64,000 bases of DNA. Origin: Mesostigma viride (Eukaryota; Streptophyta; Mesostigmatophyceae; Mesostigmatales; Mesostigmataceae). The DNA lies in contig RPFO01001106.1 of NCBI GenBank assembly GCA_009746045.1, forward strand, positions 1 through 64,000. The letters are read 5' to 3'. Every line of letters starts with the position of its first letter. The stretch's first letter is position 1. The notes under the pieces were generated by a model. That model saw only the letters and a list, made by a program, of their open reading frames with translations, was not told the origin of the DNA and did not search any database. The translations under genes and the position numbers were made by a program. Positions 48,239-64,000 of the stretch are shown here, piece after piece.

Positions 48239-51200
48239 TCACTCAAGAGGAACACGGAGGCCGTCTCCTCATCCCTCACGTCGTCAGGGAGGCCGGTGAC
48301 GTCAGGCAGTGCCGACGCATCCGACCCCCTCCGCAGCCGGTCCATGGCGGTGTCAGGCGACAAGGCGGGGGATCCAGGGTATGGCGAGGGTGCTGGGGGC
48401 CCCTGGGCTGCCAACCCAGGTCTATCGGACAAACTCGTCCCGGGCTCCGCGTTGAAACCGTCCCGGCTGCGGTTGGGCAAAGTGGGCAGCTGGCTCAAGC
48501 TGTTGGTAGGTATGCGATGGCACAGCGGGCGATGTAACAAGGTAGAAGGCAGTGTTGATCCTGCCTGGTTCCTCTCACTGTTGTGTTGCTTAGCCTTGCA
48601 CGCCACGCCACGCCACGCCACGCCCTGCCCTGCCCTACCCTGCCCTGGACCTTGGCTGCGAGGTTCGTGCTTGAACGGCTGCGTTTCCTGGCTTCTTTCG
48701 CGGGTGGTTACCTATTCAGCAGATGCACAGCCCCCTTTAAAGCCCGCCGGAATCGTCCCTCTGGTAGCATTATATTTTGTTGGCATTGCGTGCCTAAACT
48801 TTGCCCGCATTTCCCCCTCCGCATTTTTTGTGTGGTATCTGGCGAATGCGAGGGTATATAGAACAACCTTTTTGTGACCTCTACCCCCTGGACAGGGGGG
48901 TGTCCCTCCCTTCCCCTCCCCCCCCCCCCCCCCCCCCCCCCTTTCCCCCGCCGCCCCCCATATAGCCCCTGGCCAAGGCACCTAGGTGTCTCCATGCCCT
49001 AGTACCGTAGCACCCTCATGCCTGTACCCATGCCCTCCACGCCCTAGTACCGTAGCACCCTCATGCCTGTACCCATGCCCTCCACGCTCTCGTACCACCC
49101 ACACACCCTGCCCAAGTGCTGGGCTCCATTGGCCTCTTCTTTCGCCTTGATCCCACTCGCGTCATCTGACGCTGCTTGCACCCTGACGCTCCTTTCCCTT
49201 TCATTCCACTCGCCCCTTCATCCCACTCGCCCCTTCATCCCACTTGCCCCTTCATCCCACTTGCCCCTTCATCCCACTCGCCCCTTCATCCCACTTGCCC
49301 CTTCATCCCACTCGCCCCTTCATCCCACTTGCCCCTTCATCCCACTTGCCCCTTCATCCCACTTGCCCCTTCATCCCACTTGCCCCTTCATCCCACTTGC
49401 CCTTTCATCCCACTCGCCCCTTCATCCCACTTGCCCCTTCATCCCACTTGCCCTTTCATCCCACTCGCCCCTTCATCCCACTCGCCCCTTCATCCCACTT
49501 GCCCCTTCATCCCACTCGCCCTTTCATCCCACTCGCGCCATCTGATGATGATTGCAACCTCTGACCATATCCCTTGCAGTCAGATGCCAGCTGCCATACA
49601 CATGCAGTGCTGCCATACACATACACAATTACACATGCGCACGCCATCCACCTCCATCCATGCTAGGTCCGTCAAGCGGTGGCCCTTGCGAAGCCCAGTG
49701 CCACACCCTATTCCCTTCCATCCAAAGCCATTCACCCCCCATCCTCTCCATCCATGCCGAAACATCCTGTTTTCAAACCCACGCTACCTACTATCCATCC
49801 ATTTTGCCCCACCCCGTTTCTCAAACCCATCACCCCACCACATGTCATCTCCGCCCATGCCCTTGAATCCCCGTCCAAAGACCTCTCCCAGTTAACGCAT
49901 TACTTTTGCAACTTTACTTTTGCATATTGAGCAAGTTGCAAAAGTAATGCGTTTCGCATTACTTAACCCTCCCCTCCCCGTCTCACATCGTCCACTCACA
50001 TTCTTAAACATTTTCACCACATGTGGCCCGCCCGCCACCCACCTGCCCGCCCACGCCTCCCCCCCGCCCGCCCTCCTGCAGGCTCTCTACGTGCTGCTCG
50101 TCAGCTGCCTGCGCGCGCCGGTCACCACACACTTCCTCTCTGCTGCCATCCCTGCCAAGCTGTGGCGGCTGGCCGGCGTGCGCGGTGCCCCCGCGCTCTC
50201 GCAAGCAAACAAGGGGCCCTCTGTGGAGGCCCCCAACGACGCGCGCGATGGTGAGGCGGCCAGCGCGGGGCACGTGGATTCGGAGCACCGTGGGTTTCTG
50301 CGGTTGCTGGATCGGTGAGCATTCCCGGACGCCCCCTCCTCCGTTTCGCTTTCTCAAGTCTCTCTCTCGTCCCTGCCGGTTGCTGGATCAGTGCGTGCCC
50401 CCCCCACGCCTCTCATGGGACGCCTTTGTATCTTTTTCAAAGGATTTTATTCTAACTGTAGTCTAATCTTATTTGGAGGACTTTAATTTTAGTCTGATTT
50501 CCCCTTGCATGCACCCTGCTGCTGGATGGGTGAGTGTATCCGGACGCCCCCGTTCCGCTTTTTTCTCTTTTTAGTCGCCCTCCTCCCCGCCGGCTGCTGA
50601 ATCAGTCCCCCCCCCCCCCCTTTTCACTTTTATTTTACTCTACTTTGTGAAGAGTTTTAATTAATGCCTAGTACCCATTCCCTTCTAGCCACTCTACCCA
50701 CCACATAATTTTGCTCTAGTTGCCGACCTCATCTTCGTCGGCCCGGGGCCCTCCCCTCTTCGTACTTGAGTCCTGCTGTTTCTCGATAACAGAGAATGCA
50801 TGTACTGCTATATAATGTGCACACTACAATATGATGATGATTGTATAGTAGTAGCTATATGTGCACATATACTTCTAATACGTATGCATGCATTGTTCTC
50901 CAAGGGAGAGCTGACAGAGAGTTGTGGTGTGGTTCCACGCATGGGCGCGTTAGCATCCTGCCCCTCGCAAGAGCAAATTCCGTCCCTATGCATGCAAGGG
51001 TGTCATGTGGAGGCACCCTTGCATGGGTGCCCCCATGGTTGCTCAGTGTTGCCGGACACAAGGCGTGCGCAGGAGTCTCCCGTGTGTATCAACTGCTTGT
51101 GCTTGCCATCTTTCTTCTTCGTTTTTACCTTTTGGTCCACCAATCTCGGTTCAACAATCTCTCTTCACCATTCCTGGTTCCAGGCACTTCTGGAAAGTAG

Positions 51201-63200: not shown

Positions 63201-64000
63201 GCGCGATGGGGGTGACGCAGCGCATTATGCTGTCACCCGGGGAGCAGCGCGTGCCGGGGAGCAGCAACGCGCCCGTGTTCCGCGCGCGGCTGCTGCGGCC
63301 CAATGTGCCGTTCGACCTCATGGTACGAGACCTGTACAACAGGCATTAGCGGAATGTGGCCAGCTGCCGTTGGACCTCATGGTATGAGACCTGCATAACA
63401 GGCATTGGCGGAATATGGTCAGAGCAAACACGTACGCTTTGCTGCAGCGCTTTTATGGCAGCGACGTGCCCTTGGACCCCGTTCTGCGGCTCCTGCCTAT
63501 GCAAACATCTCCCCCTTGTTTTTCGTTCATGATCGCCGGGTGCTCTACTTGTTTCATTTACGACTGGTGATTCTTGGCAGTGAACGGGTGCAAATGTCTT
63601 TTCAATAGGCTTAAGCGGAATCCTGTCCGAGCGGGTGGTGCGCTGGAGCAGTACAGTCCCCGGTACAAGGTGGTACTGACATGTGTCCAGGTCATGCCTC
63701 TACGGGGTCGAGAAAATCTTAGCAAAAGCGCCACAGCGTGGCAAGACAAAAAGCCTCGAGATGCAGGGCGCTTATAGTTGGGCAGCGGCAGCGGTACCGC
63801 CTGCCTGCCCAGCGCCGTCACAATACCCTCCTTCACTTCCTTTACTTCTTGTTCATAACTGCTGTATGTGTGTCTCGTGTCGCTTGGCTGCCTAGGATTT
63901 TTCTCCCTGGAAACCTTACCAGCTAGATGTGGAGAGTGTCAAACTATCCGCATGGATGTCTGCTCACACGATCTCTCTCCGGTGCTCCTCGGCTGTGCAA
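48239..64000 (+). CDS. unrecognised multi-exon protein (15 exons), 3' part of the septin transcript or separate gene; incomplete
   Basis: Exons: 48239-48505, 50082-50314, 51406-51478, 53465-53539, 54348-54458, 55184-55306, 56391-56475, 57342-57433, 58112-58179, 58853-58931, 59930-60082, 61052-61134, 61987-62061, 63184-63322, 63896-64000+. Phases join without a stop for 587 codons and are also compatible with septin exon 8. The first two exons give a Ser/Gly-rich stretch, then a hydrophobic WLKLLALYVLLVSCL that could be membrane-associated. Later landmarks are PVRLPLCAPYVVKVPTRHG, TLRMLPSLRSCLKQVCTDEF, RVRVTVWRAHEARPHLLEVH, LYVSAWAPLLNAILKTLEY, AEILVRCLDSTGQPFAGS and GVTQRIMLSPGEQRVPGSS. I do not recognise the family. 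The weakest joints are the acceptor before 55184 and a GC donor at 56476. An alternative start is ATG 53465. Confidence 0.6.
48908..48948. repeat. poly-C tract
   Basis: A C run of about 23 bases preceded by CCCCTCC. Length is likely polymorphic or assembly-sensitive. Confidence 0.9.
49192..49542. repeat. 17-bp minisatellite
   Basis: About 20 copies of CATCCCACTCGCCCCTT with C/T at CTCG versus CTTG. It lies in the intron 48506-50081. Confidence 0.96.
49895..49952. repeat. perfect 20-bp inverted repeat in an intron
   Basis: Arms 49895-49914 (ACGCATTACTTTTGCAACTT) and 49933-49952 are exact reverse complements around an 18-bp loop. Confidence 0.93.
51450..52060. repeat. 91-bp tandem repeat made of an exon end, its donor and the start of the intron
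   Basis: Seven copies start at 51450, 51541, 51631, 51723, 51815, 51906 and 51998. The first copy contains the last 29 bases of exon 51406-51478 (GGCCCATCCTGTTCGGCATC...GGGAG) followed by the donor GTAGGAC. Later copies drift to TTTTGCATCCGGTCGGGGAG|GTAAGATG. Each copy also has TATGCTTAGTTCCTAAG. Confidence 0.95.
53585..53698. repeat. polypyrimidine CTTTCTTCCCCC repeat
   Basis: Imperfect tandem CTTTCTTCCCC modules in the intron after exon 53465-53539. Confidence 0.9.
53818..53866. repeat. 14-bp perfect inverted repeat in an intron
   Basis: Arms CGCGAATCCGTGGA (53818-53831) and its complement (53853-53866). AAAGCCTTGCAGTT occurs in the loop and again about 55 bp downstream. Confidence 0.85.
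55598..55722. repeat. 12-bp TATTTAGCTTCT repeat
   Basis: About ten copies alternating TTTAGCTTCTA and TTTACCTTCTA. Confidence 0.93.
56143..56358. repeat. GT-rich repeat (TGTGTGTTTG)n
   Basis: TGTGTGTTTG units ending about 30 bp before the acceptor at 56390. Confidence 0.93.
58497..58812. repeat. CTCCTCCCC repeat filling an intron
   Basis: About 35 copies of CCTCCTCCC(C) forming a 310-bp polypyrimidine tract directly before the acceptor at 58852. The complementary strand is rich in GGGGAGGAG. Confidence 0.95.
59104..59136. repeat. poly-G tract
   Basis: A G run of about 18 interrupted by CGT, then GGGGGG. It lies in the intron after exon 58853-58931. Confidence 0.85.
59527..59878. repeat. 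~31-bp minisatellite
   Basis: About 11 copies of ACCAAACCTCACTCAAACCG plus ATCATACACCC, ending some 50 bp before the exon at 59930. Confidence 0.95.
60166..60400. repeat. GGGCGT hexanucleotide array
   Basis: About 36 uninterrupted copies of GGGCGT, almost without substitutions after 60190. GGG tracts every 6 bp make quadruplex formation likely on the plus strand. Confidence 0.97.
60795..61042. repeat. imperfect 15-18-bp TCATCCCATACTCCC repeat
   Basis: Modules such as CCCTATCATCCCATACTCC and CCATCATCTCCTATTC, ending directly before the acceptor at 61051. Confidence 0.88.
61152..61252. repeat. 9-bp GCCCTCGTT repeat
   Basis: Eleven copies starting about 20 bp after the donor at 61135. The middle three copies read GCCCTCTTT. 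Confidence 0.95.

What the first reader, a model, noticed from the sequence alone, without database searches (positions are those of the whole stretch)
50082..63420. Recurrent tandem duplication of exon ends together with the 5' splice donor
In at least seven introns of this gene, and also at 10121 and 31384, the repeated unit starts inside the upstream exon and crosses the exon-intron border, so copies in the intron carry a decoy donor. The period ranges from 28 to about 220 bp and the copy number from 2 to about 48. Chance would not place so many duplication breakpoints just upstream of the donor. Duplication of AGGT-containing segments is a proposed route of intron gain. Here the process seems to lengthen introns and seed minisatellites. 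No selection or mechanism is shown; replication slippage near R-loops or a repair bias at donors are guesses.
Basis: partly seen in the sequence, partly recalled or inferred. Interest (0 to 1): 0.85.

Follow-up and report, generated by a model that had tools for sequence, protein, structure and literature searches.

The report
Exon-end repeats inside algal introns
In the green alga Mesostigma viride many of the introns examined carry a displaced copy of the end of the exon before them together with its splice signal, more often than at the other end of the intron, which is the same kind of oddity once described in a few amphioxus genes and gives a handle on how introns grow.

Summary
The window is from Mesostigma viride. 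Pooled, strict: donors 22/56, acceptors 5/46, random intronic points 29/254 (donor-acceptor p=0.0014, donor-intron p=3e-6; donor>acceptor in 8/8 genes). Copies lie almost only in the exon's own intron, on the sense strand. Typical block: the last ~30 nt of exon; in 12 of 22 homology stops near the donor (-3..+11). Against a donor-specific mutation bias: an age-matched control leaves 1.9x over introns, p=0.16. The 10121 case is one event in a repeat with >=40 identical copies. Protein continuity implies that the first donor is used. Closest known: amphioxus "mirages". Verdict: real, known kind, new lineage, donor-biased; mechanism open.

The parts
50082..50314 (+). exon E1; donor at 50315; copies of its end at 50373-50393 and (with intron flank) 50520-50582
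51290..51478 (+). exon E2 (start uncertain); donor at 51479
51449..52052 (+). 92-bp x 6.6 array that starts about 30 nt inside exon E2 and runs through its donor
54329..54460 (+). exon E4 (start uncertain); weak donor-crossing copy, source 54449-54519, copy 54594-54662
56391..56475 (+). exon E6 with a GC donor; source 56466-56520, copy 56572-56622
57342..57433 (+). exon E7; last 34 nt copied at 57491-57524 (94%, homology stops at the donor) and again, partly, at 57626-57653
58853..58931 (+). exon E9; weak copy of its end at 59358-59371
63184..63322 (+). exon E13; donor at 63323
63306..63422 (+). 59-bp x 2 tandem repeat that starts 17 nt inside exon E13 and crosses its donor
10120..10262 (+). 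72-bp x 2 duplication crossing a donor inside a high-copy ORF; one event, many copies
31396..32740 (+). 28-bp x 48 array; a predicted exon 31300-31410 would end inside its first unit (unverified)

Best explanation
Mesostigma introns collect short same-strand duplications, and the exon-intron border at the 5' end is where they are found most. One event duplicates a block (often about 30 nt of exon plus the first few intron bases) to a place mostly 40-250 nt further down the same intron, sometimes with unrelated spacer between. The copies then drift as neutral sequence and sometimes seed an array. They are harmless because splicing keeps using the first, original donor, so the protein does not change. 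Shown: the donor excess over acceptors and over intronic points, orientation, location, block geometry, protein continuity. Inferred: that the event is a break or nick joined with fill-in and filler, and that part of the donor excess is a real local bias. Not shown: which donor is used in RNA, and the trigger.
For: Donors 22/56 vs acceptors 5/46 vs intronic points 29/254, and donor>acceptor in 8 of 8 genes. Position profile in 58 introns (z>=4, uncurated borders): exon -90..-61 0/44, -75..-46 0/52, -60..-31 2/53, -45..-16 11/56, -30..-1 18/56, -15..14 19/56; first 120 nt of intron 0.18-0.31, further intron 0.07-0.28, last 105 nt before the acceptor 0.04-0.09. Own intron: sense 28/59, antisense 0/59; previous intron sense 1/51, antisense 2/51; another intron of the gene sense 2/59, antisense 2/59. 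CCT models are collinear with solved CCT proteins across the donors, so the first donor gives the right protein. Differences between copy and exon sit mostly at third codon positions (18/189, 27/194, 39/197 over 25 copies; 7/98, 7/101, 23/101 in the spaced class), and 10 of 15 third-position differences in seven introns are at CpG, as expected if the exon is constrained and the copy drifts. Short intronic duplications are recent in this genome: a 43-bp one differs between two haplotype contigs. Spacers do not match each other beyond one 13-nt stretch.
Against: The age-matched control leaves a donor/intron ratio of only 1.9 (10/57 vs 23/230, p=0.16); a looser pair of cut-offs gives 14/57 vs 23/230, p=0.007, but the intron search finds almost nothing below 75%, so that pair is not age-fair. 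Unmasked z-score test: donors 15/53 vs intron windows 126/605 and 135/643. Donor>intron in 7 of 8 genes, p=0.07. With 22 distinct intronic repeats the spacer contrast is not significant (15/22 vs 8/22, p=0.07). At the one donor duplication checked, both haplotypes have it. Only eight genes were sampled, seven of them one family, some in part.
Confidence: 0.5

Rival explanations
1. No donor-specific process. Short duplications fall evenly along introns. Those crossing a donor stay visible longer because the exon source is conserved, and those crossing acceptors or exons are removed by selection.
For: Age-matched control not significant; acceptors no lower than intronic points (5/46 vs 29/254, p=1); intronic duplications are common.
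Against: Acceptor sources are conserved too, yet 5/46 vs 22/56. A twofold longer visibility predicts about 23% at donors (2 x 29/254) against 39% observed. Blocks that end at the donor with 91-100% exon identity are not expected from decay (P(ext<=12) 0.00 for L020_1835, L023_3855, L024_2700 and W57433 at 0.1 indels per substitution; in L023_3855 a stretch of the intron part does recur at another offset, so that case is less clean).
Confidence: 0.35
2. The copies are kept by selection, as backup donors, U1 bait or splicing enhancers.
For: Copied blocks centre on the donor; a fraction of 0.40 of 25 copy donors scores above the 95th percentile of intronic GT.
Against: Copies lose GT (16/25 kept) and mean donor score (5.85 to 2.92); CpG decay; more than half the donors have no copy.
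Confidence: 0.07
3. Artefact: wrong exon borders or assembly errors make intron sequence look like exon copies.
For: The window gene has no homologue in the searches made, and several automatic CCT borders were wrong before curation.
Against: CCT borders give collinear proteins; the donor excess survives curation; one duplication is seen in two haplotype contigs.
Confidence: 0.05

Closest known systems
[quoted passage not shown] Adh3, globin, troponin C, PGBD5 genes; PMC3087553 and PMC3902484, passages read)
   Same: Duplicates span an exon-intron border, many carry AG/GT signals, lie in the intron, vary in copy number between haplotypes and leave regular splicing intact.
   Different: Reported there at 5' and 3' borders in a few genes, repeat units 10-160 bp. 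Here a green alga, eight genes, donor 22/56 vs acceptor 5/46, and 15 of 22 best blocks are not contiguous.
Tandem repeats denser towards intron ends in two green algae, Chlamydomonas and Volvox (PMC3887541, passages read)
   Same: Repeats near exon-intron junctions of green algal introns.
   Different: That survey reports both intron ends and mostly short motifs; the passages seen say nothing of copied exon ends ('splice' has no occurrence under that search).
Intron gain by tandem duplication of AGGT-containing exon sequence (Rogers model; Drosophila cases in PMC2891723, passages read; potato RdRp PMC4974935, search listing only)
   Same: Duplication of a segment holding AG/GT.
   Different: There a new intron arises inside an exon. 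Here the intron already exists and grows; no gain was seen.
Variable internal tandem repeats at exon-intron borders of human genes in segmental duplications (PMC2812944, passages read)
   Same: About 30-bp units at an exon-intron border.
   Different: There they can create new introns or alternative transcripts in recent primate paralogues.

Membership tests
amphioxus-type mirage | duplicated unit spans an exon-intron border | tested here: met
   22/56 donors and 5/46 acceptors with border-crossing copies
amphioxus-type mirage | tandem (head-to-tail) arrangement | tested here: inconclusive
   contiguous or nearly so in 51478, 63322, L020_4513, L021_2023; spacer over 30 nt in 15 of 22 best blocks
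amphioxus-type mirage | normal splicing is kept | tested here: inconclusive
   protein continuity in seven CCT genes; no RNA data
amphioxus-type mirage | copy number unstable between alleles | tested here: inconclusive
   one donor locus only: both haplotypes have two copies; a 43-bp duplication elsewhere in an intron of the same gene differs between them
intron gain by AGGT duplication | a new intron absent from relatives | not tested
   no relative's genome at hand
introner or transposon insertion at donors | shared inserted sequence between the direct repeats | tested here: not met
   no shared sequence among spacers of 20 nt or more except one 13-nt match; only L018_5580 hits other loci in the letters held

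The most novel reading that the evidence does not exclude
A splicing- or transcription-coupled mutational process acts at working 5' splice sites in Mesostigma: it copies a block of fairly fixed register, about the last 31 nt of the exon plus about the first 6 nt of the intron, on the sense strand into the same intron, so that the splicing machinery or its R-loop leaves a footprint in the DNA. Hints: blocks end near the donor in 12 of 22 and begin at -27..-38 in 10 of 22, no antisense copy in the own intron of 59 donors, and donor-like motifs in introns did not look hot (1/19).
Probability: 0.15. Interest if true: 0.85.

Novelty: new variant of a known kind. Interest (0 to 1): 0.55.

Why it matters
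Splice-site duplication is a long-proposed source of new introns and of intron growth, but worked examples are few and mostly single genes. If some four in ten donors of this genome carry datable copies of their own exon end, as in the eight genes sampled, the rate, register and fate of such events can be measured directly, with acceptors, intronic points and the two haplotypes as controls. It would also tell whether the first-donor rule, or a mutation bias at active splice sites, shapes intron length in an early branch of the plant lineage.

Tried and rejected
De novo gene finding in other genome stretches was too noisy to use for counts; the first run of my gene finder over-split exons and was replaced. 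Automatic borders were later corrected by protein continuity: L017 exon 2, L019 exon 3, L023 exons 1, 4, 5 and 6, L024 exon 5, and removal of unsupported exons; the corrections turned two acceptors (L023 6846, L024 4800) into hits. Counts with uncurated borders are given as such. Transposon with long target-site duplication: rejected, spacers share no sequence. Motif-driven nicking at AGGTRNG: not supported (1/19 against 29/256 random intronic points; the motif is recalled splice consensus). RNA-templated copying and paired nicks: considered, not testable here. Haplotype presence/absence at a donor: looked at once, both haplotypes have the duplication. Homologues of the window gene: none found. 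What I say of scanning for the first AG rests on recall.

Rows dropped before counts: exons under 40 nt and the second-haplotype piece L022 (from then on); three window acceptors of uncertain position and the open last intron; points with over 30% short-period repeat or too short a target. Of 57 curated introns 56 donors and 46 acceptors were scored.
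Full report
Source. The ORF at 9394-11613 matches a protein labelled jgi/Mesvir1 (99% identity in the best local alignment, 34% of the query), which I read as the Mesostigma viride annotation. The window is bases 1-64000 of contig C1053 (165,830 bases) of a 439.9-Mb assembly, close to the 441.8 Mb of the published genome (PMC6947507, passages seen). In the main text of that paper the word stem 'splic' does not occur, and mean intron length is given as 1142 bp.

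The window gene. Exons 55196-63322 (nine) join in one open frame of 295 aa; one donor is GC, and the first acceptor is uncertain. Four further exons lie upstream (50082-54460); the starts of two are uncertain. No Pfam domain and no homologue among the candidates scored (limited to proteins of similar length) were found, so borders rest on frame and signals alone.

The observation. Each donor window was compared with its own intron. 7 of 13 donors of this gene have a border-crossing copy at the loose threshold and 6 of 13 at the strict one; acceptors 0 of 8. In an earlier z-score test 5 of 13 donors and 0 of 13 acceptors reached z>=4, while 38/220 and 40/203 intronic 50-mers did. So in this gene alone the excess over introns was weak, and a larger sample was needed.

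A larger sample. A search of the genome with the chaperonin family PF00118 gave 58 exon matches. Seven genes were fetched, some in part (L017-L021, L023, L024). Gene models came from my own dynamic-programming finder. Comparison with solved structures identifies them as CCT beta, delta, eta, gamma, theta, epsilon and zeta. They are collinear across the splice junctions once spurious segments are left out; in theta, typed whole, the two spurious short segments show up as gaps. Borders were corrected accordingly.

Result. Strict threshold: donors 22/56, acceptors 5/46, random intronic points 29/254; donor against acceptor p=0.0014, donor against intron p=3.3e-6, acceptor against intron p=1. Loose threshold: 27/56, 5/46, 39/254 (donor-acceptor p=4.4e-5, donor-intron p=7.6e-7). 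CCT genes alone, strict: 16/43 donors, 5/38 acceptors. Donor fraction exceeds acceptor fraction in 8 of 8 genes (p=0.008) and the intronic fraction in 7 of 8 (p=0.07). Intronic points are not independent of each other, so the p-values against introns are optimistic. Before curation the same kind of test gave 28/57, 4/51 and 40/286. A z-score test without masking of simple repeats gave 15/53 donors, 3/53 acceptors, and 126/605 and 135/643 intron windows in the CCT genes: there donors stand out against acceptors but little against introns.

Orientation and place. With uncurated borders, 28 of 59 donors match their own intron on the sense strand and 0 of 59 on the antisense strand; the previous intron is matched by 1 of 51 (sense) and 2 of 51 (antisense), another intron of the same gene by 2 of 59 and 2 of 59. 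Intronic AGGTRNG motifs had a crossing copy in 1 of 19 cases, random intronic points outside donor copies in 29 of 256.

Geometry. In the strict set the exon side of the best block reaches from -8 to -57 (median -29.5; 10 of 22 between -27 and -38) and the intron side ends between -3 and +11 in 12 of 22. Exon stretches further in gave nothing in these tests (0/44 and 0/52 windows at -90..-61 and -75..-46; 0/42 exon-middle windows). The best copies lie 40 to 442 nt downstream, all but one within 250. Some are true tandem arrays (51478, 63322, L020_4513, L021_2023). Others have unrelated sequence between the copies. If those were tandem duplications that decayed neutrally, the intron half should still be alignable. 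Nine introns were simulated: with 0.1 indels per substitution the probability of an end at or before +12 is 0.00 for L020_1835, L023_3855, L024_2700 and the window donor 57433, and 0.00-0.02 with 0.25; it is 0.02-0.05 (0.15-0.20) for L019_3699, L023_2770 and L024_6367; two (L017_5046, L024_4907) did extend in the real data and are not in this class. In L023_3855 part of the intron half recurs at another offset, so three cases are clean. Compared with intronic repeats, 3' ends differ (KS p=0.007 on 22 distinct intronic repeats; p=9e-5 on non-independent points with uncurated borders), while the contrast in spacers is not significant (p=0.07). Acceptor copies (5) have the mirror shape: 7-39 nt of intron and about 16-26 nt of exon.

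What is bias and what is visibility. The exon half of a donor repeat is constrained, so only the copy drifts, whereas both halves of an intronic repeat drift. Old donor copies therefore stay visible about twice as long. With matched age (donor exon end at >=90%, intron pairs at >=80%) the counts are 10/57 and 23/230, ratio 1.9, p=0.16 (uncurated borders); the looser pair of cut-offs (14/57, 23/230, p=0.007) is not age-fair, because the intron search finds almost nothing below 75%. Acceptors have the same advantage of visibility and still show 5/46, but a duplicated acceptor may be harmful because an upstream AG can be chosen first (recalled, not tested here). The data therefore establish the donor-acceptor asymmetry in these genes and leave open whether it comes from mutation or from selection.

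Fate of the copies. GT is kept in 16 of 25 copies and the mean donor score falls from 5.85 to 2.92 (at least one of the offsets used, 63322, is off by one base, so the true number kept is slightly higher). Differences are concentrated at third codon positions (18/189, 27/194, 39/197 over 25 copies; 7/98, 7/101, 23/101 in the nine simulated introns); in seven of these, 10 of 15 third-position differences are at CpG. This fits neutral decay of the copy with synonymous change in the exon.

Recent events. Contig C1641 looks like a second haplotype of the CCT-theta gene. In two pieces there are 26 mismatches in 1510 aligned bases, a 43-bp tandem duplication and a 2-bp indel in one only, and an LTR-like insertion of about 3.1 kb. 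The 40-bp donor duplication at L021:2023 is present in both, with one difference in the copy and none in the exon part of the block.

10120-10262 is real, and the annotation of P0001 uses the first donor, but the ORF is a repeat with at least 40 places identical over 801 bp (40 scored of 293 candidates). 31396-32740 is a 28-bp array whose first unit may hold an exon end; unverified.

What is known. Amphioxus 'mirages' are the same kind of thing: duplications of exon-intron borders that leave splicing intact, at both borders (PMC3087553, PMC3902484; passages). A survey of tandem repeats found more of them towards both ends of introns, above all in Chlamydomonas and Volvox (PMC3887541; passages). 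The listings of searches showed no report of copied exon ends in Mesostigma or another green alga; several of these listings were capped (for example 15 of 90, 12 of 278, 15 of 87), one listed paper on intronic minisatellites (PMC12783039, passages) concerned earthworms and did not describe it, and subscription journals are mostly missing, so this is not proof of absence.

Verdict. It is a frequent, donor-biased variant of a known phenomenon, in a new lineage. Mechanism unproved.

Noticed in passing
window 9394-11613: ORF in a high-copy repeat: at least 40 genomic places identical over 801 bp; the two database proteins found (E<=0.01, 7991 candidates scored) both carry the Mesvir1 label.
   Followed up: partly
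window 38512-46364: 7.9-kb minisatellite of about 41-bp units, some 193 copies, strongly pyrimidine-rich on the + strand.
   Followed up: no
window 1-4527: 71-bp unit array of about 64 copies running off the contig start.
   Followed up: no
window 49894-49951: Inverted repeat with a short loop, looks like a small hairpin element (seen by eye).
   Followed up: no
L022:645-3769: LTR-like element with two identical 730-bp ends in a CCT-theta intron of one haplotype contig, absent from the other (L021).
   Followed up: partly
L022:4119-4162, opposite oriented position 3683 of L021: 43-bp tandem duplication in one haplotype contig only; the unit contains CGCAGGTTGC.
   Followed up: yes
acceptors L020 4408, L023 6846, L024 4800, 5521, 7166 (oriented coordinates): Acceptor-side copies with the mirror shape: some intron bases plus about 16-26 nt of exon, copied upstream.
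   Followed up: partly
window 56475: GC donor (CAG|GCACGT) required by reading phase, itself duplicated.
   Followed up: no
L011 (C1420:30001-40000): High coding score on both strands in the gene finder; possibly a contaminant contig.
   Followed up: no
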